From: a bacterium
GTDB lineage: Bacteria; CAIWAD01
DNA length: 64,000 bases
NCBI GenBank assembly: GCA_030685015.1
Contig: JAUXWS010000028.1
Coordinates: 24,629 to 88,628 of the forward strand
Direction: 5' to 3'
Every line of letters starts with the position of its first letter. Positions within the stretch are counted from its first letter, which is position 1. This document shows positions 8,572-37,644 of this stretch, one piece after another. The notes under the pieces were generated by a model. It did not search any database. It saw nothing but the letters and a program-made list of their open reading frames with translations, and was not told where the DNA came from. A program made the translations under genes and the position numbers.

Positions 8572-8583
8572 TGGACTGATTGG

Positions 8584-19258: not shown

Positions 19259-21160
19259 ATGGCACATTTGCGACCCGGGTCGCAGGGCCTCCCCATGCGC
19301 CGCCGGCACCCTTCCACCGGCTATGCGAGAGTTGCCATGCCTGTTGCACCATGTCGTTGGCGCTTGTTGCTTCTCATTGCCTCAGCGTTGTTGCTCTCGT
19401 GCACGGGGGACATGCCCCAGCAGCCGCGGCGGGACAATCCTTTTGATCCACTGATGGGCAGGGAAGGGGATCCCTTCCAGTTTGATATCCATCTCGCGGG
19501 AGATTCCCTGTTTCTGAACTGGGCATGGCCGCCGGGCGTCAACCTGGATGGGGCACGGCTCTATCAGTCCTTTGACGGCCAGGTCTGGACGGCCGTGCAG
19601 GATATGCCCCCGCCTGTTTCAACGCTACGCATCCCACTGGATGCGGAACGCCGGGGGCGCTGGCTGTCGCTGGCCCTGACGGCGCTGGCCGGCGGGGCCG
19701 AATCGTCCCTCGACAACGATGAGGTTCGAACCCGGCGGACACCGCCTCTGCTGGTGGCGGCAAGCACAGGGAGCCGCTACTGCAACCAATCCCGGGTGAC
19801 CGCCCTGGTGCGATGCGCGGATGCCGTCACGATGAAGGTGGCCGTTGGAAACGACAGCGCCACCGCGCTGTGGCAGACCTATGCCCCCACCGTCGACCTC
19901 GATCTGCCTGCCTTCAACGGCTGGCATGCGGTCTCGGCCTGGTTTCGGCTGCCCGATGATGCCGTGGAGTCCATCCTGGATTCCCTCGCCTTGGACACCG
20001 CCTGCGCCATTGCCGCGGCTTCGTGGGAGCCCTTGTCCGGGGCGTCAGCGCCCTTGCGGCCGGGCGACGCTCTTCGTCTGCACGTGCAGTTGGAGCATGA
20101 CTTCCTGGGTGCCGAGATCGGTGCGCGCGTCGTGGCCTACTGGCCCGGCCAGGCCGACAGCCTGTTGTTGGCGGACAGGGGCGATGGCCACTACCAGACA
20201 GACTATTCAATTAACGAAGACTTCTGGCAAACTGGCCAGCCCATCGAGATCCATGTGTGGGATCGGGCGGGCAATCGCCCCACCCCTCTCACGCTTGCGA
20301 ATCCCTTGGTCACAAGCCGGATGATCCTGGTCCCCGCCGGCACCTTCACCATGGGGCAGACGGGGGTGGCCGTTCCCACTCACGAGGTGACCCTGACCCG
20401 ATCCTTTCTCCTTGACCGCACCGAAGTGACCAATGAACAGTATCGGGTCGCCCTGCAATGGGCCTACAACCAAGGGCTGGTGACTTTGAGTGGCGGGACT
20501 GTCCAGGCCTATGGCGTCAACCTGCTCTACATGAACGACGCCGATTGCCTGCTCAGAATCAGTGGCGGCCGCTTCTCCATCGAGCCGGTCACACGGGGTA
20601 GTCATGCGGGATCCCTTGGTGACCAGCACCCCGTTAATGGGGTCACCTGGTTTGGGGCCGCCTCTTACTGCGATTGGCGCAGCATGATGGCTGGATTGGA
20701 ACCCTACTATCAAGGGCTGTGGAATCAGATACCCGGCTCACGCAGTCCCTATGCCGCCCTGGGCTGTCGCCTGCCCACGGAGGCGGAGTGGGAACACGCG
20801 GCACGTTTCAACGACGGCCGCACCTATCCGTGGGGCAACGGGGAGCCGACCTGCAACCTTGCCAACACCCTAGGTTGTGTAAACGGAACAGGCCCCGTGG
20901 GCAGCAAACCGGACGGGGACAGCGCACTTGGCTTCCAGGACATGGCTGGCAACGTATGGGAGTGGACGAATGATTTCAGCTCGAACTATGTGGGCGACGA
21001 TCAGGTGGACCCGGTTGGTGCTGTCAGCGGCACCGACCGGGTGGTACGTGGCGGCGGCTGGTACAGCAACAGTTCGCGCGCCCGTTGTGCCTACCGGAGC
21101 GGCAGCGCCCCCGCGAATCGCTACACCGACATCGGCTTCCGCTGTGCCAGGACTCCCTGA
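19259..21160 (+). CDS. Lipoprotein with C-terminal FGE-sulfatase (C-type-lectin-like) domain; candidate DGR target
   Basis: A 633-residue protein. ATG 19259 is preceded by AGGGAG at good spacing. A tighter lipoprotein signal peptide starts at in-frame ATG 19337 and ends in the lipobox LLLSC. Residues ~60-350 are beta-rich with Ig-like segments. Residues ~356-633 are an FGE-sulfatase/SUMF1 domain: VPAGTFTMGQ, RTEVTNEQYRVA, HPVNGVTWFGAASYC, CRLPTEAEWEHAARF, GFQDMAGNVWEWTNDF, VVRGGGW and IGFRCARTP. The formylglycine-generating active-site cysteines are not evident, so a binding role is likelier than catalysis. The last ~110 bp match the end of the gene at 35756-37609 in a way that indicates targeted mutagenesis. 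Confidence 0.85.
   Translation: MAHLRPGSQGLPMRRRHPSTGYARVAMPVAPCRWRLLLLIASALLLSCTGDMPQQPRRDNPFDPLMGREGDPFQFDIHLAGDSLFLNWAWPPGVNLDGARLYQSFDGQVWTAVQDMPPPVSTLRIPLDAERRGRWLSLALTALAGGAESSLDNDEVRTRRTPPLLVAASTGSRYCNQSRVTALVRCADAVTMKVAVGNDSATALWQTYAPTVDLDLPAFNGWHAVSAWFRLPDDAVESILDSLALDTACAIAAASWEPLSGASAPLRPGDALRLHVQLEHDFLGAEIGARVVAYWPGQADSLLLADRGDGHYQTDYSINEDFWQTGQPIEIHVWDRAGNRPTPLTLANPLVTSRMILVPAGTFTMGQTGVAVPTHEVTLTRSFLLDRTEVTNEQYRVALQWAYNQGLVTLSGGTVQAYGVNLLYMNDADCLLRISGGRFSIEPVTRGSHAGSLGDQHPVNGVTWFGAASYCDWRSMMAGLEPYYQGLWNQIPGSRSPYAALGCRLPTEAEWEHAARFNDGRTYPWGNGEPTCNLANTLGCVNGTGPVGSKPDGDSALGFQDMAGNVWEWTNDFSSNYVGDDQVDPVGAVSGTDRVVRGGGWYSNSSRARCAYRSGSAPANRYTDIGFRCARTP
21041..21157 (+). other. Candidate DGR variable region (VR), copy A
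   Basis: The codons from GTG 21041 to the stop align gap-free with 37490-37606. Variable codons here are GTA, GGC, TAC-AGC-AAC, CGC, AGC-GGC-AGC-GCC, GCG, AAT and TAC-ACC-GAC. All the others (for example AGT TCG, GCC CGT TGT GCC TAC and the final 30 bases) are identical to copy B including wobble bases. Every difference can be explained by change at adenines of a template with AAC-type codons. The invariant 3' end (21131-21160) would be the initiation-of-homing part. No template repeat or reverse transcriptase is in the window. Confidence 0.8.
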
Positions 21161-21316
21161 TCCTTGGGCGCTAGGCCATTGGTTCTTGGCTGGTTTTCCG
21201 GGTGGGGGACTCGCGGGCAAACCTGAAAGAATTGTCCCGGCAAGGGGCCAAGACCCACCGTGCGCAAGGAGATGGTCCACGGAGCGGCCGGCGTTTGGAG
21301 GCGTGAGGAGGAAGCT

Positions 21317-21916
21317 TTGCTGAGCATCCCAGGCCTGCTGGTGGCGATCTTGGTCGCCCTGCATTCCGCCGTCGCCCTCGAGGCGCCGACGAAGCAGGTG
21401 GACGCCCGCGGACCTTTGCAGGTGGGCGCCGCCGCCCCGCCTTTCGCCCTGCCGGGGCCGGAGAGCGGCGTCATCAGCCTGCGCGAGGAACTGCGCCAGG
21501 GTCCCCTCCTCCTCTGTTTCTGGGCCAGTTGGTGCCAGCCCTGCAAGGCAGGGCTGCGCCGCGTCGAGAGCTGGACGGCCGCCCGCGTCGGACAGGCGCG
21601 GTCCCTGCCGCGCATCCTCTGTCTCAACTACGCCGATGACCGGGAACGAGGCTTGGCCCTCTGGCGGGAACTGGGCCTCAGCCTGCCCGTGGCCTGGGAT
21701 CGCTACGGCGCGGTGGGCGAGCGCTACGGACTGAAGGAGGACGGCGCCAGCCTCCCTCTGACCGTCTTCATCGGCCAGGACGGCCTGCTGCGGGCCCTCA
21801 TCGTGTCCGAGGGCCCCGACCTGCCCCTCCTGCTGGACCGCCTCATGGCCGAGGAGGAGGAACGGCAACACCCGCCGGCCCCTGGCGCCTCTCCCGATGC
21901 CGGGCGGCGCCCATGA
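21317..21916 (+). CDS. TlpA/ResA-like thioredoxin-fold protein
   Basis: Thiol-disulfide protein of 199 residues from the chosen TTG 21317, which has GAGGAGGA at 21305-21312 and gives a clean signal sequence (SIPGLLVAILVALHSAVA). A GTG at 21260 is possible but gives a long charged N-terminus. The redoxin domain starts at VGAAAPPFALPGPESG. The CxxC active site is WCQPC, preceded by FWASW. SLPLTVFIGQDGLLRA supplies the cis-proline. It is exported or membrane-anchored, probably reducing or oxidising envelope protein disulfides. Its stop overlaps the ATG of the PEGA protein (ATGA), which itself has a conserved cysteine pair and is a plausible partner (inference). Confidence 0.85.
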   Translation: MLSIPGLLVAILVALHSAVALEAPTKQVDARGPLQVGAAAPPFALPGPESGVISLREELRQGPLLLCFWASWCQPCKAGLRRVESWTAARVGQARSLPRILCLNYADDRERGLALWRELGLSLPVAWDRYGAVGERYGLKEDGASLPLTVFIGQDGLLRALIVSEGPDLPLLLDRLMAEEEERQHPPAPGASPDAGRRP

Positions 21917-24237
21917 AGCGATCCCGCGCCGCCTGTGCCGTGATGGTCCTCTTCACCCTGCTCCTGGCCTGGCCCGGTCCCTGCCGTGGACAGGGCGCCT
22001 CCCCGCAAGGCGCCGCCCTCCTGGCTGTGATCGATCGCACCACCCTGCCGCTTCCGGGCCTGAAGGCGGACGAGCACCGCTACCTGGTCGGCCGCATCTA
22101 TTCCGGGGCCGAACAGCGCCTGGGCAACCGCGTACGGGTGATGACGGAGCAGAACACCTTCACCCTGCTCCAGGACATGGGCATCAATCCCGCCGATTGT
22201 GTGCAGCAGGACTGCGAGGTGGCCATCGGACGCAAGATCGGCGCGGACTGGCTGATCGTCACCAAGATCTACCGCTTCGACGAGCGCAGTCCCTTCATCT
22301 TCGAGCTGGGCCTTTACCAGACCGGCTCCGGCGCCTTCCACGGCGCCCAGGAGGCGCGGGGGCAAAGCACGATCGAGTTGAGCGACCGCGCCCGGGAGGC
22401 CGCGGACAAGCTCTTCGACAAGCTGCTCGAGAAGCTGGGGGGCGTGGCCCGTGCCGAGACGGCCCAGCTGACCTTCCTGATGGAGCCGGGACCGGTCTTC
22501 ATGCTGCGCGACGGGCTGGCGATCGGCACCCTGACGGTGCCTGCCAGCGGCCGCCTGCGCCTGGACACGGCCCCGGGCAGCCACGACTTCGTCTTCAGCC
22601 GCGAGGGCAAGGAGGATGTGCGCAGCTCCCTCGAGGCGGATCCGGCCCGACCCCGCGAGATCGAGGTGCAGTTCCAGCCGGGACGGCCGGAGGTCCGGGT
22701 GGAGGGGTCGGGCAAGGGGCTGCTGCGCGTGGCCAGCGAACCACGCGGCGCCACCGTGCACTTGGATGACGTGGAAGTGGGCACGACCACGCTGCAGCTG
22801 GTCGATGTGGCGGCCGGCTCCCACCGCGTGCGCCTCAGCAAGCCGCTCTACAAGACACGGGAAGTGGATGTGGCGGTGGCCGAGGACGCCGTGGCGGAAG
22901 TGAGCGAGACTCTGGCGCCGGATTTCGCCCCCCTGGAGATCCTCTCGGAGCCGGCCGGCGCCTCGGTCTGGGTGGATGGACAGGAAAGGGGTCGGACGCC
23001 GTGGCGCGAGGAGCGCTTTCCCGCGGGCCGCAGCGCTCTGCGCCTGCGGTTGGACCTGCACCATGACCTCGAGGATGTCCTGACGGTGGAGGCGGGCCAG
23101 CCCCTGCGCCTCAGCCTGTCGCTCCAGCCGGCCTTTGGCAGCCTGCGGGTGGAAACCCAGCCGCCGGGCGCCCAGGTCTTCGTGGACGAGGAGGAGTGGG
23201 GCGCCGCCCCCGTCGCGCGGGACCGGGTGCGCAGCGGTCGCCACACCGTGCGGGTCCGCGCGGACCTCTACAACGATTACGAAAGCTGGGTGGAGGTGCA
23301 GGACGGCGGGCGCCACACGGTGCGGGCGGACCTCAGCGCCGACTACGGCACGCTGCGGCTGGCCGGCTCGCCGGCCGGGGCCCGCGTCCTGGTTGATGGC
23401 GCGTACCGGGGAGTCCTCCCTATTGATCTGCGCCTGCCTCCCGGCCAGCACCGCCTGCGCGTGGAGGAAGTCGACCACGACGTCGTGGAGGAGGACATCA
23501 CCGTGGCCGTGGGCGAGGAGCGGGACCGCCGCCTGGACCTGGTCCGCCAGACGGGTGGGCTGCGCATCCTGGTGGAACCCCCCGATGCCATCATCCACCT
23601 GGACGGCCTGCGCCTGGGTCCCAGCCCCCAGGTGGTGAAGGAGCTCCCCACCGGTCGCCACCAGGTGCGGGCCAGCCTGGCGGAGCACGCCGACCACAGC
23701 CGCAGTGTGACCATCCGGCGCGGGGTGCAGGAGCAGGTGGACATCACCCTTTCCCGCGCGGCCTGGCTGGAGTACCGCCAACGGCGGCTCAAGGCGACCT
23801 TGGGTTCCCTGGTCGTTCCGGGCGGAGGCCAGCTCGCCGCCAGGCAGCCGCGGGGACTCGTCTACCTGCTGGGCGCCGCGGGTGGCATCGCCCTGGCAGT
23901 GGATTCCTGGCAGCGTCATGACCGGCTGGAGCGGGACTACGAGGAGGCGCGCCACCACTATGCCAGCTCGCTGGATGAGGCGGAGCTGAACCGGCACTAC
24001 GCGGACATGGAAGCGGCCTGGGACGGGATGAAACGCCAACGGGACCTGCACTGGGCCGGCGTGGGGCTGGCCGGTGTCGCCTGGCTGGCGGGAGTGGCGG
24101 ACGGCTGGCTGCTGGGCGGGGGTTCCCGGGACACGGGCAAGGAAAAGGCAAGCCAAAAAGAACATGGCTGCACCTTGCATTTCGGCTTGGCGAGATTTGC
24201 GAACGCACCTGCCATAGAGTTGTGTGTTCGCTGGTGA
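21913..24237 (+). CDS. CsgG/FlgO-like module + five PEGA repeats + membrane segments (paralogue 1)
   Basis: A 774-residue envelope protein. A signal peptide covers ~1-27. Residues ~35-205 are a CsgG/FlgO/LpoB-like module with the family signature ALLAVIDR, VMTEQNTFTLLQDMGIN and IGADWLIVTK, and a cysteine pair at 96 and 101. Five PEGA-type beta repeats follow (~268-610), each starting GxLRV..xPxGAxVxVDG. A PGGGQL segment with a hydrophobic helix at ~635-660 and another at ~713-732 resemble a DUF5683-like membrane tail. PEGA repeats usually bind surface glycan or peptidoglycan; the exact role is unknown. ATGA overlap with the TlpA-like gene. A duplicate lies at 27621-29903. Confidence 0.8.
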   Translation: MKRSRAACAVMVLFTLLLAWPGPCRGQGASPQGAALLAVIDRTTLPLPGLKADEHRYLVGRIYSGAEQRLGNRVRVMTEQNTFTLLQDMGINPADCVQQDCEVAIGRKIGADWLIVTKIYRFDERSPFIFELGLYQTGSGAFHGAQEARGQSTIELSDRAREAADKLFDKLLEKLGGVARAETAQLTFLMEPGPVFMLRDGLAIGTLTVPASGRLRLDTAPGSHDFVFSREGKEDVRSSLEADPARPREIEVQFQPGRPEVRVEGSGKGLLRVASEPRGATVHLDDVEVGTTTLQLVDVAAGSHRVRLSKPLYKTREVDVAVAEDAVAEVSETLAPDFAPLEILSEPAGASVWVDGQERGRTPWREERFPAGRSALRLRLDLHHDLEDVLTVEAGQPLRLSLSLQPAFGSLRVETQPPGAQVFVDEEEWGAAPVARDRVRSGRHTVRVRADLYNDYESWVEVQDGGRHTVRADLSADYGTLRLAGSPAGARVLVDGAYRGVLPIDLRLPPGQHRLRVEEVDHDVVEEDITVAVGEERDRRLDLVRQTGGLRILVEPPDAIIHLDGLRLGPSPQVVKELPTGRHQVRASLAEHADHSRSVTIRRGVQEQVDITLSRAAWLEYRQRRLKATLGSLVVPGGGQLAARQPRGLVYLLGAAGGIALAVDSWQRHDRLERDYEEARHHYASSLDEAELNRHYADMEAAWDGMKRQRDLHWAGVGLAGVAWLAGVADGWLLGGGSRDTGKEKASQKEHGCTLHFGLARFANAPAIELCVRW

Positions 24238-24266
24238 GTAATTAATGTGGACAAGGGAGGTAAGTT

Positions 24267-26402
24267 ATGAAGAAGATGTCCTTCCATGTTGGACTGATGG
24301 TTGTCTCGACGCTGTTTTGTTCCTGTTTGACTGAGGACGAAGAACAACAGCATCCGACCGGAAACATCGCTGGTGTCATTACAGACTCCGTCACGGGCAG
24401 CGGACTGGCTGGTGCTGTAGTGTCGACGGTTCCCATCACGACCACCGCCATCAGCGATGCCAATGGGCAGTTCAACGTTTCAGATGTCGCAGTGGGGTCC
24501 TATCTGACATCCGCTGCCAAGACGGGTTACTCCACACGCACGGTTAGCACCTCCGTGCTGGCCAACCAGACCGCCACCGTGTACATGAGCCTTGAAGTCC
24601 TGCGACCAACACTGCATGTCTCGACGACGAATCTCTCCTTCGGCACCACCACCACCACCATCACATTGTCAATTCAAAACTCGACAGGGTACGGGGAGCT
24701 GCAGTGGACAATTGAAGAAGACTCGCCTTGGTTGTCGGTCTCACCGTTAACGGGGACAACGACACTAGAGACGGATCTGGTCACGGTCAGTGTCGATCGC
24801 TCGGGCCTCAGCGCGGGCAACTACCAGGGGCAGTTGCAGGTGGTGTCCACGGGCGGCTCTCAGCCGGTCGGAGTGCTCGTGACCGTGCCGGACACCAGCG
24901 GTCCGCAACTGACAGTGAGCCCATTGGAACTCGATTTCGGCAGCAACCAGAGCACCGCCATCGTCTCGGTCACCAACACGGGTATTGGGACCCTATCCTG
25001 GTCGGTAGTGGAAGCCTATCCCTGGGTGTCGGTAAACCCAAGCTCTGGCACAACCAGTACGGAAACTGACCAGTTGGTCTTTACTATCGACCGCACGGTG
25101 GTGGCCGTAGGCATCCACCAAGGGCAGGTGGCCATTACGGCTCTGCAGGGTGGCAACGCAGCCGTCTCCTTGTCCATGGAGGTAACTCCCAGCGCAATTC
25201 CGCCAGTTACACTGAATGAGCCAACTAACGTCACTACGCACGGCATGACCCTGGCCTGGACCCGGACGGAGATCACAAACTTCGCCTTGTACAGGCTTTA
25301 TCGATCCACCACGCCGGGCGTGTCTAACCTATCCACCCTTGTTTATGAGACCAGTTCCCGAACATCCAACCTATTTTCCGACACAGGGCTTAGTTCGGGA
25401 ACAACCTACTACTATAGGGTCTATCTACTTGCGACGGATCAATCAGAGTCGGGGAGCAATGAGATCAGCGGAACTACGATGTCACAAGTTGGCACTTGGA
25501 GTACAATTTATAGTCCGCCTAACAATAATTGGTATGGTAGTGCTATATGTATGATTGGTTCAAATGTAGGATATTTTGGATTTAATACAGGCAGTAGGCC
25601 AACAATTTTATATTGGGACGGATCAATAATGACTGAGGAAACACTGCCTGCTGTTGATCAAAATGAGTCGTACTCCTATATTTCAGATATAGAGTTTATA
25701 AATAGCAACGAGGTATACGCATCTTATCAATATCCGTATTCAAACCCATCTCAGAATTCTGGTTTATATATGTTCAATGGGTCAACATGGAGTAAATATC
25801 AAGCTCTTGATAACATGTCAATATACTCTTTAGAGATTACACCATCTGGTAACCTATGGGTAGGATCTAATGGTTTTTTGAAGAGAAAAATAGGCAGTCA
25901 AATTACGACATATAATGTCGACGCTACTTCAATAATGGATATTCACGCATTGTCTGATGATAACATATTTTGCTGCGATATTGATGGAAAAATCTTTCAT
26001 TATGATGGATTTGGATGGGCATTGATAACAAATCCGCCTATAGGTGTAGATAACTGCGAATCAATTTATGCATCATCTGTTAATGATATATATATTGACA
26101 CAAAAAAATCATTATATAGATATGACGGATTTTCGTGGAATTTAGTCTTGCAATCAAGAAATACATCTTCGAAAATACGAGACGTGTATATTCGATCTGA
26201 ATCAAATATCTGGTTAGGTGGTTATATGATTGATTTTACAGATGATAATATTCTCGATAGATTCGAGTTTGCTTTTTACGATGGAACTAGTTTTCGTGGG
26301 GTTGAGAGTCCATCCAATAAAGAGATCGTCAAGATCCAGTTCTTTGGGAATGTGGGGTGGGCTGTGGATACCGATGGCAACGTGCTGAGATATAGCGAGT
26401 GA
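24267..26402 (+). CDS. Modular lipoprotein: carboxypeptidase-regulatory, BACON-like, Fn3 and AT-rich C-terminal beta domain
   Basis: A 711-residue lipoprotein with lipobox FCSC and a strong AGGGAGG before the ATG. Order: carboxypeptidase-regulatory-like domain (~33-108, GVITDSVTGSGLAGAVVST), two BACON-like beta sandwiches (~114-208 and ~213-307, each with SPWLSVSPLTGTT or YPWVSVNPSSGTT), a fibronectin III domain (~312-406), then a C-terminal ~300-residue repeat-containing domain (LYMFNGSTWSKYQ, IFHYDGFGWALI, LYRYDGFSWNLV) that looks like a beta propeller. Base composition falls sharply at about 25490, exactly where the Fn3 domain ends: 17 of 60 bases are G/C at 26041-26100. BACON and propeller domains suggest glycan or protein binding at the surface. 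The signs of chimerism are discussed in the findings. Confidence 0.78.
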   Translation: MKKMSFHVGLMVVSTLFCSCLTEDEEQQHPTGNIAGVITDSVTGSGLAGAVVSTVPITTTAISDANGQFNVSDVAVGSYLTSAAKTGYSTRTVSTSVLANQTATVYMSLEVLRPTLHVSTTNLSFGTTTTTITLSIQNSTGYGELQWTIEEDSPWLSVSPLTGTTTLETDLVTVSVDRSGLSAGNYQGQLQVVSTGGSQPVGVLVTVPDTSGPQLTVSPLELDFGSNQSTAIVSVTNTGIGTLSWSVVEAYPWVSVNPSSGTTSTETDQLVFTIDRTVVAVGIHQGQVAITALQGGNAAVSLSMEVTPSAIPPVTLNEPTNVTTHGMTLAWTRTEITNFALYRLYRSTTPGVSNLSTLVYETSSRTSNLFSDTGLSSGTTYYYRVYLLATDQSESGSNEISGTTMSQVGTWSTIYSPPNNNWYGSAICMIGSNVGYFGFNTGSRPTILYWDGSIMTEETLPAVDQNESYSYISDIEFINSNEVYASYQYPYSNPSQNSGLYMFNGSTWSKYQALDNMSIYSLEITPSGNLWVGSNGFLKRKIGSQITTYNVDATSIMDIHALSDDNIFCCDIDGKIFHYDGFGWALITNPPIGVDNCESIYASSVNDIYIDTKKSLYRYDGFSWNLVLQSRNTSSKIRDVYIRSESNIWLGGYMIDFTDDNILDRFEFAFYDGTSFRGVESPSNKEIVKIQFFGNVGWAVDTDGNVLRYSE

Positions 26403-26498
26403 GGACGTGTCGTAATGAAAGAGGAACAAACTAGTCGTTATAGCGAGGAGGACTTGGAAGGACAATCGGGTCCGGGGTGGCTAGAATGAACGCGATTA

Positions 26499-27601: not shown

Positions 27602-27620
27602 TAGGCTCATCCTTTCCCTC

Positions 27621-29903
27621 ATGTTGTTGTTTACGATGGCGTTCGTATCACAGGCACAATCGCCGCAGGAAGATTCTCAGGCCCTACTCGCTGTGGTTGA
27701 CCGCACTGCCTTGCCGCTGCCGGGACTAAAGGCGGACGAGCTGCACTATCTCGTCGGGCGCCTTTACCCGTGGGCCGAGCAGCGCTTAGGCAGCCGCGTG
27801 ACAGTCATGACCGAGGAGAACACCTTCACCCTTCTTCAGGACATGGGCATCAATCCCGCCGATTGTGTGCAGCAGGACTGCGAAGTGGCCATCGGACGCA
27901 AGATCGGCGCGGACTGGCTGATCGTTACAAAGCTCTATCGTTTTGATGACAAGGCTCCGTTCATCTTTGAGCTGAGGCTCTACCAGACGGCCACCAGCGT
28001 TTTCCTCGGGTCGCAAGAAGCACGCGCCCTGACGGTGATCGATCTGGCTGACCAAGCCAACGCGGCAGCGGAAAAGATCTTCACGCGATTGATAGACAAA
28101 CTGGGCGGAGTGCGCCACGTTGAAACCGCCCAGCTGACCTTCATACTTGAACCTGGACCCGTGTTTGTGCAACGCGACAACCAGGCAATCGGCACACTAA
28201 CGGTACCTGCCAGCGGTCGCCTGCGCTTGGACACATCACCGGGCAGCCACGACTTTGTCTTCAGCCGGGAGGGTAAGCTGGATTGGAGCAGGAAGCTTGA
28301 TGCCATGACCGGTGCCCCGCAAGAAATCTCCGTGAGCTTCCTTCAAGGCAACCCGGCCGCCATACCGTCTGGCTCGGGCAGTGGCGTCCTCCGCGTGGCC
28401 AGCCAACCCGGTGGGGCGACCATCCATCTGGATGACGTGGAAATCGGCACAACCACGCTGCAACTTGCCGACATCACTATCGGCATGCACCGCTTGCGTC
28501 TCAGCAAGCCTTTGTACCAGACCATCGAAAGGAATGTGCTGATCAGCGAAGATGCCGTCACGGAGGTCAGCGAGAGCTTGGCACCAGACTTCGCTCCATT
28601 GACTGTGCGCTCTGATCCGCCAGACGCCGTCGTGCTGCTGGACGGCCAGGAGCGCGGTCGTACGCCCTGGAGCGTTGAACGCTTTCCCACTGGTCAGTAC
28701 AGTTTGCGCTTGCGGGCAGACCTGTATCACCAGGAGGAGCGCGTCCTCCGTGTTGAGCCCGGTGTTCCACTGCAGATAGATGCGCGCCTGAGACCGGCCT
28801 TCGGTTCCCTCATGGTCGAATCCCATCCCGATGGTGCCGAGGTCTTTGTGGACGAAGTGTCGTGGGGACGCGCGCCTGCGCAGCGTGACAAGGTCCGGAG
28901 TGGTCGTCACGCCGTCCGTGTTCGCCTTGAGCTATTCAACGATTACGAGAGCTGGGTGGACGTTGCGGACGAGGGCCGTCACATCGTGACGGCGGATCTC
29001 AGCGCGAACTATGGCACCCTGTCGCTATCGGGATCGCCAGTGGGCGCGCGTGTTCTCGTGGACGGAACGAGTTCAGGCACGCTTCCCATAGAACTCCGCC
29101 TTCGACCGGGCAGCCATCGGTTGAGGGTAGAGCGGGATCAATACAATCCCTTCGATGAGACTATCGTTCTGGCTGTGGGAGACCGGCGGGAAAGACAGAT
29201 CAATCTTGTCCGCCAGACTGGTGCCTTGTTTATCATGGTGAGTCCGCCTGAAGCCAGAATCTACCTCGACGGTCGACGCCTAGGAGAAAGTCCGCAGATC
29301 CTCAAGGAGCTGCCCACAGGCCGCTATCAGGTTCGGGCTAGCTTGGCGTCTTACGCGGATCATGCGGAAATTATCGATTTGACCGTCGGATCTCAAACGC
29401 GATTGGAAATCACCCTGTCACACGAGGCTTGGCTCGAATACGCTGCACGGCGTCGCAAGGCAACCTACGCGGCGGTCCTGTTTCCAGGCGGAGGACAACT
29501 CATCAGTGGCCAGAAGCGAGGAGCCATCTATTCGCTGGCCGCGGGGGCAGGCGCTTGGCTGTCAGTTCTGTCTTCACAGAAGTACGAGACTGCCCTGAAA
29601 GACCTTCATCGTGCGGAGCTGCAATACCGCAACTCGATTGATCCGCTGGAGCACGCCCGGCACTATCAGGAAATGCTGGATGCCAGGGATGAACAGAGAC
29701 AATCTCGCCGCCTATACTGGGCAGGTATGGCGACAGCTGGTACCAGTTGGTTAGTGGGCGTGGTAGACGCTAGGCTGTTCGGCGGTACCGCGCGCGAAAC
29801 AGATATACATAAGGTCGAAAATCGACGAGGGACGTTTTGGCACCCACGACTGGTACTCACCTCAAATGTCCCAGGAGTGGCGATTCTGTGGTCCTGGCAT
29901 TGA
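27621..29903 (+). CDS. CsgG/FlgO-like module + PEGA repeats (paralogue 2), 5' end disrupted by IS630
   Basis: Duplicate of the protein at 21913-24237 with the same architecture: CsgG-like module with VMTEENTFTLLQDMGIN and the cysteine pair, five PEGA-type repeats, a PGGGQL membrane segment and a final hydrophobic helix. The remaining frame opens at ATG 27621 and encodes MLLFTMAFVSQAQS, only a stub of a signal peptide without a basic n-region, and with no ribosome site. Removing the IS and one TA joins ATG 26486 in frame (MNAIRLILSL then MLLF), restoring a 770-residue protein. Export is therefore probably lost unless a start inside the IS is used. Third-position use is less GC-rich than in paralogue 1. 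Confidence 0.8.
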   Translation: MLLFTMAFVSQAQSPQEDSQALLAVVDRTALPLPGLKADELHYLVGRLYPWAEQRLGSRVTVMTEENTFTLLQDMGINPADCVQQDCEVAIGRKIGADWLIVTKLYRFDDKAPFIFELRLYQTATSVFLGSQEARALTVIDLADQANAAAEKIFTRLIDKLGGVRHVETAQLTFILEPGPVFVQRDNQAIGTLTVPASGRLRLDTSPGSHDFVFSREGKLDWSRKLDAMTGAPQEISVSFLQGNPAAIPSGSGSGVLRVASQPGGATIHLDDVEIGTTTLQLADITIGMHRLRLSKPLYQTIERNVLISEDAVTEVSESLAPDFAPLTVRSDPPDAVVLLDGQERGRTPWSVERFPTGQYSLRLRADLYHQEERVLRVEPGVPLQIDARLRPAFGSLMVESHPDGAEVFVDEVSWGRAPAQRDKVRSGRHAVRVRLELFNDYESWVDVADEGRHIVTADLSANYGTLSLSGSPVGARVLVDGTSSGTLPIELRLRPGSHRLRVERDQYNPFDETIVLAVGDRRERQINLVRQTGALFIMVSPPEARIYLDGRRLGESPQILKELPTGRYQVRASLASYADHAEIIDLTVGSQTRLEITLSHEAWLEYAARRRKATYAAVLFPGGGQLISGQKRGAIYSLAAGAGAWLSVLSSQKYETALKDLHRAELQYRNSIDPLEHARHYQEMLDARDEQRQSRRLYWAGMATAGTSWLVGVVDARLFGGTARETDIHKVENRRGTFWHPRLVLTSNVPGVAILWSWH

Positions 29904-29916
29904 TATGGAGCAATTG

Positions 29917-30510: not shown

Positions 30511-30522
30511 CGGGAGGTTTCC

Positions 30523-31644
30523 TTGCCCTCATCGTTCTCGCCTGGAACCCGCTGGGCGCTCCTCGGCCTGGTCCTGCTCCTGGTCGCCTGCGGCGCGTCC
30601 CGCTCGCTCAAACCCGGGGAGAGCCGCGTGGTCCGGGCGCTGGGAGATGCCGGCCTGCGCTCCCAGGCCGGACCGGGGCTGTTCATCGGCGTCTCCCACG
30701 CCTGCGCCGACGAGTCCGAGGCGCGCCGGGACGCCGAGCTGCAGGCCCGCCAGGCCATCATTTCCTCCCTCCACAGCCAGGTTGAGAGCAGCGTGCTGCA
30801 GCGGGTGACGCTGGATGGGCGTCCCGCCCAGATCCTTGAGGCCTCCGTGGAACAGGAGGCCCAGGTGCGCGCCCTCAGCCGCAACCTGGTCAGCGTGCAG
30901 GCCGAGGCCTGGTACATCGAGACCCGGGAGCGCGCCACGGACAGGGGTCTGCAGGTGGAGGTGCAGGCCTGGTGCCGCATGCGCTATGACCGGGCGGATC
31001 ACCAGCGCCTGCTGCAGGAGCTGCTGGATGAACTGGGTCCCGCCATCGAGGAGGGCGGCCGCAGCGCCGGCCTGGCCCTGGCCGGTTCGCGCGTGGGAGA
31101 AGGACTCCGCCTGGCCGGCCGGGCCTGGCGCCAACTGAAAGCCCTGGACCGCTACGAAGGCTGGACCCCCGCCCAGCTGAAGCGACGGGAGGACCTGCGC
31201 CAGGGGGTGGAAGAGGCGCTGGGCCGATTCACCATCCACGTGGCCCTGGAGACCCGCTTGGACAAGCAGCCGGTCGTGAGCGGGTTCGGACCGGCCCTGG
31301 CCCGCGCCCTGCGCCGCCAGCTGCCCGTGACCATCCTGGAGGGCGCCGCTGTGGCGCAGGCCTCCGGAGCCCTGTTGACGGGAACCCTCGACCTGACGAC
31401 GCGCACCGTGGCCGGCGGGCTGGTGAGCTGCACGGGCCGGCTGGAGACCACGCTGCAAACGCTGGCGGGCGGGGAGGTCCTTTGGCGGGCGGTGGAACCG
31501 GGCGGCGGCCTGACCGACCTGCGCGAGGCGGGAGGCAACGCCGAGTGGGCCGTGCGCCGGTTGCTTGAGAGCAAGATGCTGCTGGAGAGCCTGCCCGAAT
31601 CCCTGGCCACGGGCTTGCGCCAGCGCCTCTTGGAGCAGATGTGA
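30523..31644 (+). CDS. LPP20-like lipoprotein with extra C-terminal domain (2 of 3)
   Basis: A 373-residue lipoprotein, TTG start with GGGAGG at 30512-30517. The lipobox is LLVAC. The first ~170 residues have the LPP20 pattern: a short N-terminal segment, GVSHACADESEARRDAELQARQAI, then a beta strand with GLQVEVQAWCRMRYDR. After an alpha-helical linker (~165-235) comes an LpoB/CsgG-like alpha/beta region (FTIHVALETRLDKQPVVSG, LLTGTLDLTTRTV, WRAVEPGGGL). This two-part plan recalls FlgT, which joins an LPP20-like domain to C-terminal domains; that is a structural analogy only. It is 12 bp after lipoprotein 1 and 25 bp before lipoprotein 3, in one operon. Confidence 0.68.
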   Translation: MPSSFSPGTRWALLGLVLLLVACGASRSLKPGESRVVRALGDAGLRSQAGPGLFIGVSHACADESEARRDAELQARQAIISSLHSQVESSVLQRVTLDGRPAQILEASVEQEAQVRALSRNLVSVQAEAWYIETRERATDRGLQVEVQAWCRMRYDRADHQRLLQELLDELGPAIEEGGRSAGLALAGSRVGEGLRLAGRAWRQLKALDRYEGWTPAQLKRREDLRQGVEEALGRFTIHVALETRLDKQPVVSGFGPALARALRRQLPVTILEGAAVAQASGALLTGTLDLTTRTVAGGLVSCTGRLETTLQTLAGGEVLWRAVEPGGGLTDLREAGGNAEWAVRRLLESKMLLESLPESLATGLRQRLLEQM

Positions 31645-31669
31645 CACACCATTTCCACAGGAGGAGACC

Positions 31670-32278
31670 ATGAGACAGCTGCGACGGATTCTGCCCCTGC
31701 TGCTGGCCGCCCTGGTGCTGGCGGGATGTGCCGGAGGCCGCAAGATGATGGAGGGAAGCCGCCGGCAGATCAGCGGCGGGGACCGCCCCAGTTGGGTGGA
31801 CAATCCCCAGAAGGAGAGCACCAAGGAGATGAAGGCCTTCGCCGGCCTCTCCCGCCAGTTCGCCATGGAGTCCGATGCCCGCACCGATGCCCGCATGAAC
31901 GCCTACATCCAGGCCATCGACGCCGCCGGACTGCAGGGCAAGCGCATGTTCGACCAGGTGGCCAGCCTCATCGGCGCCTCCTCGGACATTCTCACCCCGG
32001 GCGTGGTGCAGGACGAGATGACCCGTCTCAAGGGCCAGGGCGTGGCCATGGGCGATGTCAAACAGTGGCACGTGGAACAGTGGGAGCTGCTTGAGAACGG
32101 CGCCCTGCGCCGCTACTTCGTGGTCCAGGCCCTCTTCATGATGCCGAAGGATGCCCCCAAGCAGTTCATGGAGAACCTGCTCAAGGCCAAGGCCGCCGCC
32201 GAGGCCGACGAACAGGTGCGCCAGAACATCAACCGCGCCCTGGAAAAGATGCAGGAAATGCAGAGTGAGGATTGGTAG
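31670..32278 (+). CDS. LPP20-like lipoprotein (3 of 3)
   Basis: A 202-residue lipoprotein with lipobox VLAGC and a strong GGAGGAG before the ATG. SGGDRPSWVDNPQKESTKEM, the alanine-rich helix SDARTDARMNAYIQAIDAAG and the C-terminal MQEMQSEDW match lipoprotein 1 at both ends. Predicted to be an outer-membrane lipoprotein of unknown role, expressed with its neighbours and followed by CsgG-like paralogue 3. Confidence 0.75.
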   Translation: MRQLRRILPLLLAALVLAGCAGGRKMMEGSRRQISGGDRPSWVDNPQKESTKEMKAFAGLSRQFAMESDARTDARMNAYIQAIDAAGLQGKRMFDQVASLIGASSDILTPGVVQDEMTRLKGQGVAMGDVKQWHVEQWELLENGALRRYFVVQALFMMPKDAPKQFMENLLKAKAAAEADEQVRQNINRALEKMQEMQSEDW

Positions 32279-32309
32279 CCGCCATCCATCGACTCCACAT
32301 GTCATCCTG

Positions 32310-33548
32310 GTGAAAGCGCACGTTGCTTCCAGGGCTGCGCCCAAGGCGTGGGCCGCCGCCTGGATCATGGCCGTCCTCGCCTGGCCGGGCCTGTTCTCCG
32401 CCCTGGGCGGCGCCTGGGCGATGGAGGCGCCTGTTGTCGGCGCCACCCTGGTGGCGGTCATCGACCGTTCAAGCGAGGCGGGCAGCGGCTTGAACGAGGA
32501 CCAGCGCTCCATCCTCTCCCAGGCGGCGCGCGGCCAGCTGGTCAGATCCCTGGCCCACCGTGGATGTGTCGTCCTGTCCGAAGAGAACACCATCGCCATT
32601 CTGCGGGACATGGGCGTCGACCTGGCCACCTGCGAGGGCGAATGCGAGCTGCAAGTGGCCCGCACCCTGCAAGCGGACTGGCTGGTCTCCATCCGCCTTG
32701 TGCGGCTGGGCGGCGAGTGGACCGTCCAGGCCAACCTCTTCCGCACCTCCAGCGGAGCCATGGTGGGCGGCGAGACCCGGGAGTGCGGCAGCGAACGGGA
32801 GCTGCGACCCGCGCTGCAGCACCTCATCCGGGACCTCTGCCACAGCCAGTTCCCCGAAGCAGGGGGGGACAGGGTCGGGGTCGCGGCGGAGCCTCCCGCG
32901 ACCAGCCCGCCGCGGGAGGCGGAAGGGGTCGTGCTTCGGGACCGGGAGCCAAAACCGGTCCCGCCGGCCACCGGCTGGGAAGAGCGCCGCTCGGGCATCC
33001 GCAACCGCTTCTGTCTGGAAGGCGGCTGGGGTCCCTGCTTCTTCTATCCCCGCCAGGAGGGAACGGTCCGGCGCAGCGTCATGGCCTGGGGCGCGGACCT
33101 GCGCTACGCCGACAGAAGCGCCTCGCTCTACGACCTCGTCCTCAGCTGGTGGCGCGCCACCGAGGACTTCGATGACCACCCCGAGGCGAAGACGCACTAC
33201 GCCCTGCTGCGGGCGGTCGTCGAGATCACGCCCCTCCACCTGGGGCCGGTGCACGCCTTCGGCCGCGCCGGCTACCAGGTGATCCAGACCCGCACCAAGT
33301 GGGACGAGCGCCTCCTGCTGGGCGGCCCGGGCCTGGAGTACCGCGCCCGCGGAGGCCTGGCCCTGGCGGCCGGCATGGACTTCCTGAAAGAGCATAGGCT
33401 GAGCGACGGCCGCTTCAGCGAGGTCACGCGCCACTATCGCGCCGAGTGCTCGTGGTCCGGCGCCAATCTCGGCCTGGGATTGGAAGCCCTGTTCGGGGGC
33501 GAGGCCAAGGCGGAGGAATCCATCACGGCAAGACTGCTCATCTATTGA
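32310..33548 (+). CDS. CsgG/FlgO-like module fused to a beta-rich C-terminal domain (paralogue 3)
   Basis: 412 residues from GTG 32310, chosen because it is followed by a signal peptide (WIMAVLAWPGLFSALGGAWA); ATG 32367 is another option and no strong ribosome site is visible. The N-terminal module shows TLVAVIDRSSEAGSG, VVLSEENTIAILRDMGVDL, the CEGEC cysteine pair and LQADWLVSIRLVRLG. After a proline/charged linker (~190-230) the C-terminus (~235-412) has alternating strands with many Tyr/Trp/Arg residues and ends in an aromatic residue (ITARLLIY), like a small outer-membrane barrel. Operon with the LPP20-like genes. Function unknown. Confidence 0.7.
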   Translation: MKAHVASRAAPKAWAAAWIMAVLAWPGLFSALGGAWAMEAPVVGATLVAVIDRSSEAGSGLNEDQRSILSQAARGQLVRSLAHRGCVVLSEENTIAILRDMGVDLATCEGECELQVARTLQADWLVSIRLVRLGGEWTVQANLFRTSSGAMVGGETRECGSERELRPALQHLIRDLCHSQFPEAGGDRVGVAAEPPATSPPREAEGVVLRDREPKPVPPATGWEERRSGIRNRFCLEGGWGPCFFYPRQEGTVRRSVMAWGADLRYADRSASLYDLVLSWWRATEDFDDHPEAKTHYALLRAVVEITPLHLGPVHAFGRAGYQVIQTRTKWDERLLLGGPGLEYRARGGLALAAGMDFLKEHRLSDGRFSEVTRHYRAECSWSGANLGLGLEALFGGEAKAEESITARLLIY

Positions 33549-33570
33549 GCGTCTCGCCCTTACGACTTGT

Positions 33571-33597
33571 CATACTTTGAAAGTATGATTATCATAC
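33571..33597. promoter_or_regulatory. Overlapping palindromes upstream of the AAA_14 ATPase (candidate operator)
   Basis: CATACTTT-G-AAAGTATG (33571-33587) overlaps GTATGAT-T-ATCATAC (33583-33597), giving three alternating CATAC/GTATG half-sites that end 4 bp before the ATG at 33602. The AT-rich block stands out from the GC-rich surroundings. It would suit autoregulation by a dimeric repressor. Confidence 0.6.
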
Positions 33598-33601
33598 ATC
33601 C

Positions 33602-34840
33602 ATGAGCAGCACAAAGCAAAGCCCTCTGCCCCGTCTGGCCGCCGGGGGCCTCAAGAAGGCCCTGGCGCTATCCCCCGTCGTTGTGCTCACCGGGGCGCGG
33701 CAGACGGGCAAGACCACCCTGGTGAAGGCTCTGCCTGAACTGGCCGGCCGGCCCTACCTGAGCCTGGACGACCTGGACCTGCGCACCCAGGCCCTGGAGG
33801 AGCCGGAGGCCCTGGCGCGGCGCGCTCCCGCCCTCGTGCTGGATGAAGTGCAGCGGGCAAAGGACCTGCTCATCGCCGTCAAGCGCGTCGTGGATGAGGA
33901 TGCCCGGCGCACTCCCGGCCGCTTCGTGCTGACCGGATCGGCCAACCTGCTCATGCAGGAGCAGGTCGCGGAGAGCTTGGCCGGTCGCGCCGTCTACGTC
34001 CAGCTCTGGCCTTTCACCCGCCGCGAACGCCTGGGCCTGGGGCGGGCCGGCGCTTGGAGCCGCCTGCTGGAGACGCCCTCGGCGGACTGGGCGCGCTGCC
34101 TGCGCGAGGAGGCCGGTCCGCGGGAGGACTGGCGCGACGCGGCCCGGCGCGGCGGGATGCCCGTGCCCAGCCTGCTGGAGGACCCCGAGGCCCGGCGCCT
34201 GTGGTTCTCCGGTTACGTGCAGACCTACCTGGAGCGCGACTTGCAGATGCTGCGCTCCGTGGCGGGCTTGCCCGACTTCCGCCGCCTGATGCGCGCCGCC
34301 TGCCTGCGCATGGGCGGCCTGCTCAACCAGACCGAACTCAGCCGCGACACGGGCATCGTGCAGCCCCAGGTGCACCGCCACCTGGGCCTGCTGGAGGCCA
34401 GCTACCAGGCCGTGCGCCTGCCGGCTTTTTCGGTCAACCGCACCAGGCGGCTGATCAAGGCGCCCAAGCTCTACTGGAGCGACACGGCCCTGGCCCTGCA
34501 CTTGGCCGGCGAGACGGAGCCCCGCGGCGCCCACCTGGAGAACCTGGTGCTGGCGGACCTGCTGGCCTGGCGCGACGCCCAGGCGGAGACGGTGAGCCTG
34601 CTCTACTGGCGCACGGCCACGGGCCAGGAGGTGGACTTCGTGGTGGAGACGCCGCGCCGCCTGCTGCCGGTGGAGGTCAAGGCCGCCACCCGCGTCCAGC
34701 CGGCCGACGCCAGGGGCCTGGAGGCCTTCCTGGACGAGTACCCGGACCTGGCCGAGGGCGGCCTGCTCCTCCACGCGGGCGAGGAGGCCTTCCCCCTGAC
34801 GCGCCGGGTCTGGGCCGCGCCCTGGTGGCAGGTATGTTGA
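33602..34840 (+). CDS. AAA_14 / DUF4143 ATPase
   Basis: A 412-residue ATPase of the AAA_14-DUF4143 type. Walker A is GARQTGKTT (31-39), Walker B is LVLDEVQRA (~78-86) and sensor 1 is FVLTGSAN (~108-115). A winged-helix part follows (LNQTELSRDTGIVQPQVHRHLGLLE). The DUF4143 C-terminus carries VDFVVETPRRLLPVEVKAA, which resembles a PD-(D/E)XK core. Such proteins are frequent in bacteria and archaea, often transferred, and their function is not established. Here the gene interrupts the CsgG-like cluster, has its own palindromic operator, and overlaps the next gene by 7 bp. Confidence 0.88.
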   Translation: MSSTKQSPLPRLAAGGLKKALALSPVVVLTGARQTGKTTLVKALPELAGRPYLSLDDLDLRTQALEEPEALARRAPALVLDEVQRAKDLLIAVKRVVDEDARRTPGRFVLTGSANLLMQEQVAESLAGRAVYVQLWPFTRRERLGLGRAGAWSRLLETPSADWARCLREEAGPREDWRDAARRGGMPVPSLLEDPEARRLWFSGYVQTYLERDLQMLRSVAGLPDFRRLMRAACLRMGGLLNQTELSRDTGIVQPQVHRHLGLLEASYQAVRLPAFSVNRTRRLIKAPKLYWSDTALALHLAGETEPRGAHLENLVLADLLAWRDAQAETVSLLYWRTATGQEVDFVVETPRRLLPVEVKAATRVQPADARGLEAFLDEYPDLAEGGLLLHAGEEAFPLTRRVWAAPWWQVC

Positions 34841-35733
34841 GCCAGGGCCGGAGGACCACGCGGCCGCGCCGCGCCCGGGAGGTGCTGGCGCGCCTCGTCC
34901 TCTTCGCGCTCCTGGCCCTCCCCGTCCCGGCGCGGGCCGGGCTGCTAGCCGTCATCGACCGCTCCCACCCCACCAGCGCGGAACTCAATGCCGACCAGTT
35001 GAGCCTGCTGGCGCAGGCCGTGCGCGGCGAGGCCGCGCGCCACCTGGGCGCCCGGGAGGTCGCCGTGCTCTCCGAGGAGAACACCGTCACCATTTTGAAG
35101 GACATGGGCGTGGATCTGGCCCGCTGCGAGGGCGAGTGCGAAGTGGAGCTCGCCCGCACGCTGCAGGCCGACTGGCTGGTCACGAGCAAGGTCGTGCGCT
35201 TCGGAGCGCAGTGGACCCTGCAGCTGAACCTCTTCAAGACCGCCACGGGCCAGCTGGCGGGCTCCGAGCAGCTGACGGCGAAGGGGAAGGAGGATCTGGT
35301 CAACGGCGTCCCGCGCGCGGCCTGCCGGCTCCTGGCCGGCACCTGGGCGCCCGACTCCGCCTGCGCCTCCCTGGCCCAGCCGGCGGCGCCGGGGCAGCAA
35401 TCCGCCGGGACGCCCGCCCGGCCCGCCGTGGTCAGGACCGCCGACTCTGCACCATCAACCCCGTCGCCTGCCGCCGTGCAGCCGCCGAAAAACACCCCGG
35501 GCAGATCGACGCGCTGCCTGGGCACGACCCAGGCCGGCGCCCGCTGCAAGCGCACCACCGAGAGACCCAGCGGCTACTGCTGGCAGCACGAGGACCAGGC
35601 CGGGACCCGCCCGTGGACCGAACCGGCCCCGGACCTGCCGGACGCCGAGCGCTGCCGGGCGATGACACAGAGGGGAACGCGCTGCACACGGCGCGCCACC
35701 GCCAATGGCCTCTGCTGGCAACACAAGAAATGA
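34834..35733 (+). CDS. CsgG/FlgO-like module with two C-terminal Cys/His knuckles (paralogue 4)
   Basis: 299 residues. A signal peptide ends near 36 (ALLALPVPARA). The CsgG-like module covers ~37-185, with LLAVIDRSHPTSAEL, VLSEENTVTILKDMGVDL, cysteines 98 and 102, and LQADWLVTSKVVRFG. A proline/alanine linker leads to two tandem ~27-residue knuckles, RCLGTTQAGARCKRTTE...YCWQHE and RCRAMTQRGTRCTRRAT...LCWQHKK. Each has C-x7-C-x9-11-C-x2-H and resembles the DUF5763-type zinc-binding repeat. A likely metal-binding exported protein; role unknown. The ATG overlaps the ATPase stop. Confidence 0.75.
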   Translation: MLSQGRRTTRPRRAREVLARLVLFALLALPVPARAGLLAVIDRSHPTSAELNADQLSLLAQAVRGEAARHLGAREVAVLSEENTVTILKDMGVDLARCEGECEVELARTLQADWLVTSKVVRFGAQWTLQLNLFKTATGQLAGSEQLTAKGKEDLVNGVPRAACRLLAGTWAPDSACASLAQPAAPGQQSAGTPARPAVVRTADSAPSTPSPAAVQPPKNTPGRSTRCLGTTQAGARCKRTTERPSGYCWQHEDQAGTRPWTEPAPDLPDAERCRAMTQRGTRCTRRATANGLCWQHKK

Positions 35734-35755
35734 TCCAGGACCCGGAGCCGACGCC

Positions 35756-37609
35756 ATGCCCTTGCTGCGACTGCTGATCCTTCTTTGCCTGGTCGGGCCG
35801 GCCCCGGCCCAGCTTCTCGCCGTGCTGGACAAGTCCAAGCCGGAGGACGCCGGCCTCTCCCAGGCCAAGCTCAACATCCTGGCCCAGGCCGCCCGCGGCG
35901 AGGCGCGCCGCCGGATTCCGGAGCAGTTCCAGGTCATGAGCGAAGAGAACACGATCACCATCCTCAGGGACATGGGGGTCAATCTGGCGGCCTGCGAAGG
36001 CGAGTGCGAGGTGGAGATCGCCCGCAAGTTGCAGGCCGACTGGCTGATGAGCGTCCAGCTGGTGCGCTTCGGCAGCGCCTGGAACCTGCAACTCAATCTC
36101 TTCGAGACGGCGACGGGCGCCCTCAAGGGCAGCGAGCGGGCGCAAGTGGCCCAGGAGGACCGCCTGATCGCCGTGGCCGAAGAGAAGACCGGCCTCCTCG
36201 CCCTGCTGGTGGGGCGCCGGTCCGACCTGCCCGCCAGCGGCCGCATTGGTGGCGGCGGCGAGGAGTGGGAGCTGCCCGCCACGGTGGGTGTCCTGGTCAC
36301 CTTCGAATCCACCCCGCCCGGCGCCACCGTCACGCTGGACGGCAGCTACCTGGGCGAGACGCCCATCACCCGGGAACTGACCCCGGGTCCCCACAGCCTG
36401 AAGCTCAGCCTGTCCCGCTACGAGGACCTGGTCGAGCGGGTGACCGTGGACAAGAGAGCGGTGCTCGCCCGACCCTTGACTCCCCTGTTCGGCTGGCTGA
36501 CGGTGGAGAGCACACCCGCGGCGCAGCCGGTCTGGCTGGACGGTGTCCGGGCAGGGGACACGCCCCTTAGGGATCACGTGCTGGGCCATGGCCCCCACGT
36601 GGTGCAGGTGGGGGACAGCGTCCGGACCTACCCGGTGGGCGAGCGCTTCGCCTTGGCCAAGGGGGAACGCAAGACCCTGAGTTTCGACGTCCTGCAGCGA
36701 ACGGGCGGCCTGGTCGTGCGGCTGGTGGACGCCCAGGGCAATGCGCTGGAGCAGGCCGTGACGGTGGACGGCACGCCCCGCGGCAACAGCCCGCTGCAAC
36801 TGAAGCTGCCCATCGGGGAGCATGTGGTCGAGGCGGACGGGAAGCGGCATTCCGTTCGGGTGGTGGAGAAGGAGATCGAGTCGCTGGTCCTGACTGTGGA
36901 GCGCGCGGCCGCGTCGCCTGCGGGGGGCCAGGGCGTGGCCGGCCCCCTGCCCGGCATGACCTTCGTCACCCTGCCAGCTGGCAGCTTCCAGATGGGCAGC
37001 ACCACGGGAGATGAGGACGAGAAACCCGTGCACAAGGTGACGCTCTCCTCTTTCGCCCTGATGACGACGGAAGTGACGCAGGTCCAGTGGCGGGCGGTGA
37101 TGGGCGACAACCCCTCCTACTTCAAAGGCGACGACCTGCCCGTCGAATATGTGAGTTGGAATGACGTGCAGGACTTCCTCCGCAAGCTCAACCAAAGAGA
37201 TCCCGGCAAAGGCTACCGCCTGCCCACGGAGGCAGAGTGGGAGTATGCCTGCCGGGCGGGGTCGACCGCGAGGTGGTGCTTCGGAGACAATGAGTCGCAG
37301 CTGGGTGACTACGCATGGTACATCGCCAACGCCGATGGCCGCACCCATCCGGTGGGCCGGAAGCGGGCCAACGCCTGGGGCCTCTTCGACATGCACGGCA
37401 ACGTGTGGGAGTGGTGCCAGGACTGGTATGGGAACTACCCCTCAGGAGATTTGACGAATCCCGCAGGACCGACCAGCGGCGCCTACCGGGTGGTGCGTGG
37501 CGGCAGCTGGGGCCACGTCAGTTCGAACGCCCGTTGTGCCTACCGGGGCTACAACACGCCCACGGATCGCAGCTACTACATCGGCTTCCGCTGTGCCAGG
37601 ACTCCCTGA
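35756..37609 (+). CDS. CsgG/FlgO-like module + PEGA-like repeats + FGE-sulfatase/lectin domain (paralogue 5); candidate DGR target
   Basis: 617 residues. A signal peptide covers ~1-19 (LLILLCLVGPAPA). The CsgG-like module has LLAVLDKSKPEDAG, VMSEENTITILRDMGVNL, cysteines 80 and 84, and LQADWLMSVQLVRFG. Three PEGA-like repeats (~178-385) follow. Residues ~400-617 are an FGE-sulfatase domain: TLPAGSFQMGS, MTTEVTQVQWRAVMG, PVEYVSWNDVQDF, YRLPTEAEWEYACR, GLFDMHGNVWEWCQDW, VVRGGSW and IGFRCARTP. The end of the gene (37490-37606) matches the lipoprotein at 19259-21160 in the DGR pattern. The protein would display a variable lectin-like tip on an envelope-anchored PEGA stem. Confidence 0.87.
   Translation: MPLLRLLILLCLVGPAPAQLLAVLDKSKPEDAGLSQAKLNILAQAARGEARRRIPEQFQVMSEENTITILRDMGVNLAACEGECEVEIARKLQADWLMSVQLVRFGSAWNLQLNLFETATGALKGSERAQVAQEDRLIAVAEEKTGLLALLVGRRSDLPASGRIGGGGEEWELPATVGVLVTFESTPPGATVTLDGSYLGETPITRELTPGPHSLKLSLSRYEDLVERVTVDKRAVLARPLTPLFGWLTVESTPAAQPVWLDGVRAGDTPLRDHVLGHGPHVVQVGDSVRTYPVGERFALAKGERKTLSFDVLQRTGGLVVRLVDAQGNALEQAVTVDGTPRGNSPLQLKLPIGEHVVEADGKRHSVRVVEKEIESLVLTVERAAASPAGGQGVAGPLPGMTFVTLPAGSFQMGSTTGDEDEKPVHKVTLSSFALMTTEVTQVQWRAVMGDNPSYFKGDDLPVEYVSWNDVQDFLRKLNQRDPGKGYRLPTEAEWEYACRAGSTARWCFGDNESQLGDYAWYIANADGRTHPVGRKRANAWGLFDMHGNVWEWCQDWYGNYPSGDLTNPAGPTSGAYRVVRGGSWGHVSSNARCAYRGYNTPTDRSYYIGFRCARTP
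37490..37606 (+). other. Candidate DGR variable region (VR), copy B
   Basis: It aligns without gaps to 21041-21157. Variable codons here are GTG, AGC, GGC-CAC-GTC, AAC, GGC-TAC-AAC-ACG, ACG, GAT and AGC-TAC-TAC; the rest match copy A base for base. At 19 of 23 differing positions one copy has A; at the other four neither has A but both are compatible with a mutated A. Outside this block the two FGE domains are much less alike. Confidence 0.8.
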
Positions 37610-37644
37610 GCCCTTGGGTTCTTGGGTCTTGGCCCTTGGCTTAT

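What the first reader, a model, noticed from the sequence alone, without database searches (positions are those of the whole stretch)
21041..37606. Two candidate DGR variable regions 16 kb apart in FGE/C-type-lectin genes
Seen: 21041-21157 and 37490-37606 align without gaps over 39 codons. 24 codons are identical to the wobble base, while 15 codons differ at 23 positions. One copy has A at 19 of those positions; at the other four (21062/37511, 21101/37550, 21109/37558, 21128/37577) neither does, but both bases could come from a mutated A. Variable codons cluster as NNC triplets (TAC AGC AAC against GGC CAC GTC; TAC ACC GAC against AGC TAC TAC). A template such as TGG AAC AAC AAC AGT TCG explains them. 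Known: DGR targets (Bordetella Mtd, Treponema TvpA) end in exactly this FGE/CLec fold with RGGSW..R..IGFR. Inference: both genes are trans targets of one DGR encoded outside the window.
Basis: partly seen in the sequence, partly recalled or inferred. Interest (0 to 1): 0.93.

Follow-up and report, generated by a model that had tools for sequence, protein, structure and literature searches.

The report
Orphan targets of a hypermutating retroelement
Two surface-type protein genes in this bacterial genome end in sequences that a diversity-generating retroelement has rewritten at adenines; three more genes in the genome carry the same kind of ending, but the template that rewrote them is missing from the assembly, while two other complete retroelements of the same type are present.

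Summary
The genome (3.61 Mb, 105 contigs) holds three more VRs of this family; at all four sites where neither window copy has A, another copy does. Two complete DGR cassettes (HRDC, bAvd, DGR-type RT, template at the RT 3' end) and their own VRs lie elsewhere in the genome; there 66 of 81 TR/VR mismatches fall on template adenines. Neither template can have made the window VRs (22 or more non-adenine mismatches). The template of this third family (TR3) and its RT are not in the 97%-complete assembly: unassembled or lost. VR plus downstream element thus behave as a module that moved between FGE genes. New member of a known kind; Treponema denticola is a close parallel.

The parts
19259..21160 (+). 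target gene 1: 633-aa protein with lipobox-like signal (LLLSC) and C-terminal FGE-sulfatase domain
   Evidence: ORF; Pfam PF03781 E 1.4e-49, residues 354-631; signal read from the translation
21036..21160 (+). variable repeat 1 (TR3 family)
21147..21160 (+). VR-type 3' end of the repeat (CCAGGACTCCCTGA), IMH-like; DGR VRs seen here have AGGAC, their templates AGCAC/AGTAC
   Evidence: alignments; control FGE genes
35705..37609 (+). target gene 2: 634-aa protein with signal-type N-terminus, PEGA domain and C-terminal FGE-sulfatase domain
   Evidence: ORF; PF03781 E 2.9e-54 and PF08308 E 8.9e-26; best solved structure TvpA 2y3c E 1.1e-38
37485..37609 (+). variable repeat 2 (TR3 family)
37596..37609 (+). 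VR-type 3' end of the repeat (CCAGGACTCCCTGA), IMH-like
37610..37644 (+). downstream element shared by the TR3-family targets (CCCTTGGGT..CTTGG..CCCTTGG)
   Evidence: this copy against C90b, C90a, C41 p 0.002-0.004 by shuffling; no match to TR1/TR2 targets
37645..37665 (+). hairpin/cruciform-like inverted repeat GGCCGCGCC-ACC-GGCGCGGCC, 35 bp past the stop codon
   Evidence: local stem; fold of the stretch is not unusual against shuffles, z -0.97

Best explanation
The two segments are variable repeats of a diversity-generating retroelement (DGR): an RNA copy of a template repeat is reverse transcribed with errors at adenines and the cDNA replaces the 3' end of the target gene, changing exposed residues of an FGE/C-type-lectin-fold domain in secreted or lipid-anchored proteins. 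They belong to a family of five targets of one template (TR3). TR3 and its RT are not in the assembly: either an unassembled third cassette acts on them in trans, or it was lost and these are leftovers. The VR together with its downstream element has spread to FGE genes of three separate lineages. Shown: VR pattern, three more copies, two complete DGRs of the same type in the genome, exclusion of their templates, framework/VR discordance. Inferred: TR3 itself, presence or loss of its cassette, current activity, ligand-binding function.
For: Exact pattern and statistics. Five copies in the genome; all four sites lacking A gain one. The inferred template explains the window copies with 17/17 and 16/16 changes at A (circular in part). 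Two complete DGRs: RTs at C86 and C67 (GNLTSQ, YMDD; closest solved RT 8ub7 E 1.8e-43 against 2e-19 for a group II intron RT), bAvd PF22296 and HRDC next to each, templates at the RT 3' end; TR1/VR mismatches 26/27 and 22/32 at A, TR2/VR 18/22 (p 1e-16, 2e-7, 3e-11). VR-type AGGAC end as in VRs of G000 and of the distant genome G051. Best structural relative of target 2 is TvpA. One clade of TR3 carriers rejected, p-AU 1e-45.
Against: No TR3, third RT or third bAvd in a 97.24%-complete assembly. Target 1 has no clear downstream hairpin and a weak downstream element; C90:29698 has TGA in place of the conserved TGG; C41 and C90:9947 carry a few non-A changes (6 and 2). No read or strain data for activity.
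Confidence: 0.93

Rival explanations
1. Gene conversion or recombination among paralogous FGE genes keeps the last 120 bases alike, and ordinary positive selection makes the binding loop variable; no retroelement needed.
For: The shared stretch runs about 35 bases past the stop in several targets, beyond a normal template, which points to DNA-level transfer at some stage.
Against: Differences fall at A-containing sites far more than upstream and at first and second codon positions while constant codons are identical to the wobble base; the same genome has two TR/VR systems acting on FGE genes with the same pattern. Gene conversion alone would also homogenise the variable codons.
Confidence: 0.05
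2. The window VRs are templated in trans by the two DGRs that are in the assembly (TR1 or TR2).
For: Both cassettes act on FGE genes and TR1 is 74% like the inferred template.
Against: 22-25 (TR1) and 27-38 (TR2) mismatches at non-adenine template positions against each of the five VRs, against 0-6 for the inferred TR3.
Confidence: 0.02
3. The TR3 DGR is gone from this genome and the five VRs are fossils that no longer change (a sub-case of the best explanation; the figure is its share).
For: No template or third bAvd in a 97% assembly; stop codon in one copy; target 1 and C41 lack a hairpin; T. denticola isolates with target genes but no RT or TR are reported (PMC4891356).
Against: Contig C90 breaks in a tandem repeat 272 bases after one VR, VR/TR regions are repeats prone to assembly gaps, and four of the five copies have almost no non-A changes, which speaks for recent templating.
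Confidence: 0.4

Closest known systems
Treponema denticola DGR (TvpA and six further targets)
   Same: one template feeding several dispersed targets, some of them lipoproteins; isolates with orphan targets lacking RT and TR are described (PMC4891356); TvpA is the best solved relative of target 2
   Different: here two further DGRs with their own templates coexist, the third family's template is not found, and the five targets have unrelated FGE frameworks
Bordetella phage BPP-1 DGR (Mtd)
   Same: adenine-specific TR/VR differences, IMH at the VR 3' end, GC-rich downstream hairpin, Avd and RT (PMC3240598)
   Different: bacterial-genome FGE targets; template inside or across the 3' end of the RT gene; hairpin loops do not follow the GRNA consensus, and not every target has a hairpin
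Cyanobacterial and Thiohalocapsa multi-target DGRs
   Same: remote targets far from the RT (PMC7517822; PMC10907252), FGE domains among targets
   Different: remote targets there were assigned to a template present in the genome; here the template is absent from the assembly

Membership tests
DGR variable repeat/target gene | VR at the 3' end of a C-type-lectin-fold (FGE) domain gene | tested here: met
DGR variable repeat/target gene | copies differ almost only where the template has A | tested here: met
   19/23 in the pair; 28 of 31 variable columns in the four close copies show A, and the pair differs from upstream at p 2e-4; template inferred, not observed
DGR variable repeat/target gene | matching template repeat in the genome | tested here: inconclusive
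   none found in the 97% complete assembly, which has gaps; TR1 and TR2 excluded
DGR variable repeat/target gene | DGR-type RT in the genome | tested here: met
   two, C86 and C67, each with bAvd and HRDC; neither is linked to this template family
DGR variable repeat/target gene | IMH-type 3' end distinct between VR and TR | tested here: inconclusive
   window VRs have the AGGAC form of the VRs here; TR3 not available to compare
DGR variable repeat/target gene | hairpin/cruciform downstream of VR | tested here: inconclusive
   9-bp stem after VR 2, none clear after VR 1
DGR variable repeat/target gene | diversification in a population | not testable with these tools
   no reads or same-species genomes held; same-genus genomes carry no such VR

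The most novel reading that the evidence does not exclude
VR plus downstream homing element is a mobile module: TR3-type ends have replaced the ends of FGE genes of lineages that serve the other two DGRs of the genome, so targets switch between coexisting retroelements (template capture).
Probability: 0.5. Interest if true: 0.6.

Novelty: new member of a known kind. Interest (0 to 1): 0.5.

Why it matters
A genome with three DGR template families acting on one protein fold, where targets of the third sit on frameworks related to targets of the other two, is a natural case for asking how DGRs recruit new target genes. It also shows that remote and orphan targets, which contig-based surveys miss by design (stated in PMC8144416), can be recognised from VR-to-VR comparison alone.

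Tried and rejected
TR1 and TR2 as donors. Searching a TR3-type constant block in 85,000 species genomes and in IMG/VR: six chance hits without FGE context, and none. Inferred TR3 against phages and plasmids: only short or 74% partial matches. Same-genus and same-family genomes: no matching VR or TR and no DGR RT (the G002 hit has the group II intron motif QGGPLSP). Joining contig C90 to another contig through its terminal tandem repeat: no partner. Folding of the downstream stretches is not exceptional against shuffles, so the hairpin is weak evidence. The C105 FGE copies were examined as a possible fourth system: degenerate, no RT.

Full report
Observation. The two segments are as described: ungapped over 39 codons, 24 codons identical, 23 differing bases, 19 with A in one copy. 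The pattern is far from ordinary paralogy. In the pair, shared amino acids use the same codon 24/25 times in the repeat and 37/70 upstream (p 3.8e-5); differing sites involve A 19/23 against 105/245 upstream, and third-position changes are 2/23 against 103/245.

More copies. Searching the window's genome (G000, 3.61 Mb, 105 contigs, 97.24% complete) with the repeat gave five copies in all: the two in the window, C90:29698, C90:9947 and C41:102049. Variable columns without any A are seven, all singletons in C41 or C90:9947. An inferred template with A at the variable sites differs from the window copies at 17 and 16 sites, all template A, and from the others with 1, 2 and 6 non-A changes. Since the template was inferred from the copies, this shows consistency, not proof.

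DGRs in the genome. Six RT regions were found. Two, at C86 and C67, are DGR-type: motif GNLTSQ, YMDD, best solved match 8ub7 at E 1.8e-43 (to my knowledge the Bordetella DGR RT; the database names it only 'Reverse transcriptase') against 2e-19 for a group II intron RT. Each is preceded by an HRDC-domain gene and a bAvd gene (PF22296), and no other bAvd exists in the assembly. Their A-rich templates lie at the 3' end of the RT gene, inside it for C86 and across the stop for C67. TR1 has VRs at C88:30585 and C52:3228, TR2 at C67:86046, all in FGE genes; mismatches at template A are 26/27, 22/32 and 18/22. So mutagenic retrohoming of FGE genes by this RT type is established for this genome by sequence pattern.

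Not the donors. TR1 and TR2 need 22-38 changes at non-adenine positions to give any of the five VRs of the window's family. A third template is required and is not in the assembly, nor in 59 other genomes, IMG/VR, or phage and plasmid collections. C90 ends in a tandem repeat 272 bases past a VR, a plausible but unproven place for a missing cassette. Loss is the alternative; orphan targets are known in T. denticola isolates (PMC4891356).

Ends of the repeats. In G000 and in the unrelated genome G051 the VRs end in AGGAC where the templates have AGCAC or AGTAC; the five copies carry the VR form. Of twelve other FGE genes from G000 and relatives only one has AGGAC in its last 15 codons. Downstream of the stop, the five share a stretch (CCCTTGGGT..CTTGG..CCCTTGG) that the TR1/TR2 targets lack, while those share another (TACCCTTTTACCCTTTG) (the link of target 1 is weak, p 0.004-0.1). 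A hairpin follows VR 2 (37645-37665) and C90:9947, as in the targets at C88 and C67, but not VR 1 or C41; fold energies are not exceptional.

Framework and VR disagree. With the VR removed, target 2 groups with the TR2 target at C67 and a same-genus FGE gene (100/100 support; 58% identity to C67), target 1 is nearest to the TR1 targets (49-55% identity, placement not decisive), and the other three form their own group. Holding the five together is rejected (delta lnL 139, p-AU 1e-45; identities). The shared VR is therefore not inherited with the gene. Either a 3' segment carrying the homing signals was copied between genes and then kept uniform by templating, or the TR3 cDNA integrated into new FGE genes. 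The shared downstream stretch favours the first.

Targets and function. Target 1 has a lipobox-like signal; target 2 a signal-type N-terminus and a PEGA domain; both end in FGE-sulfatase domains. The best solved relative of target 2 is TvpA, a DGR variable protein. Diversified ligand binding at the cell surface is the likely role, by analogy.

Known or new. Multi-target and remote-target DGRs are known (PMC4891356, PMC7517822, PMC6642488, PMC10907252). New here, as far as the papers read go, is the coexistence of three template families on one fold with targets of one on frameworks allied to targets of the others.

Verdict. DGR target genes, high confidence; belonging to a third, unassembled or lost DGR; new member of a known kind with an instructive framework/VR discordance.

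Noticed in passing
L031 (C86) 8953-9080 and L032 (C67) 12153-12280: Template repeats lie inside or across the 3' end of the RT reading frame, so the RT tail is read from the template in another frame (glutamine-rich QQQQ tail in C86).
   Followed up: partly
L008 1524-1526 (C90:29721-29723): One TR3-family target has TGA where all others have the conserved TGG, truncating the protein.
   Followed up: no
L043 and L047, match regions from 1501: The VRs of TR1 (C88) and TR2 (C67) carry small indels against their templates that shift the frame near the C-terminus.
   Followed up: no
L092 (C105) 122-664 and 8545-9093: A lower-GC stretch (55%) with two FGE copies, the second broken by stops, A-rich in the VR position and with an AGGAC end; perhaps a decayed target of another DGR.
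   Followed up: partly
L095 and L096 (G051), L073 (G029): Distantly related genomes carry clean DGR cassettes of the same RT type, with two VRs per template in G051 and one in G029.
   Followed up: partly
window 22000-22365, 27681-28031, 32439-32804, 34840-35454: Several window genes share the N-terminal domain of target 2 (38-52% identity), a local family of paralogues.
   Followed up: no
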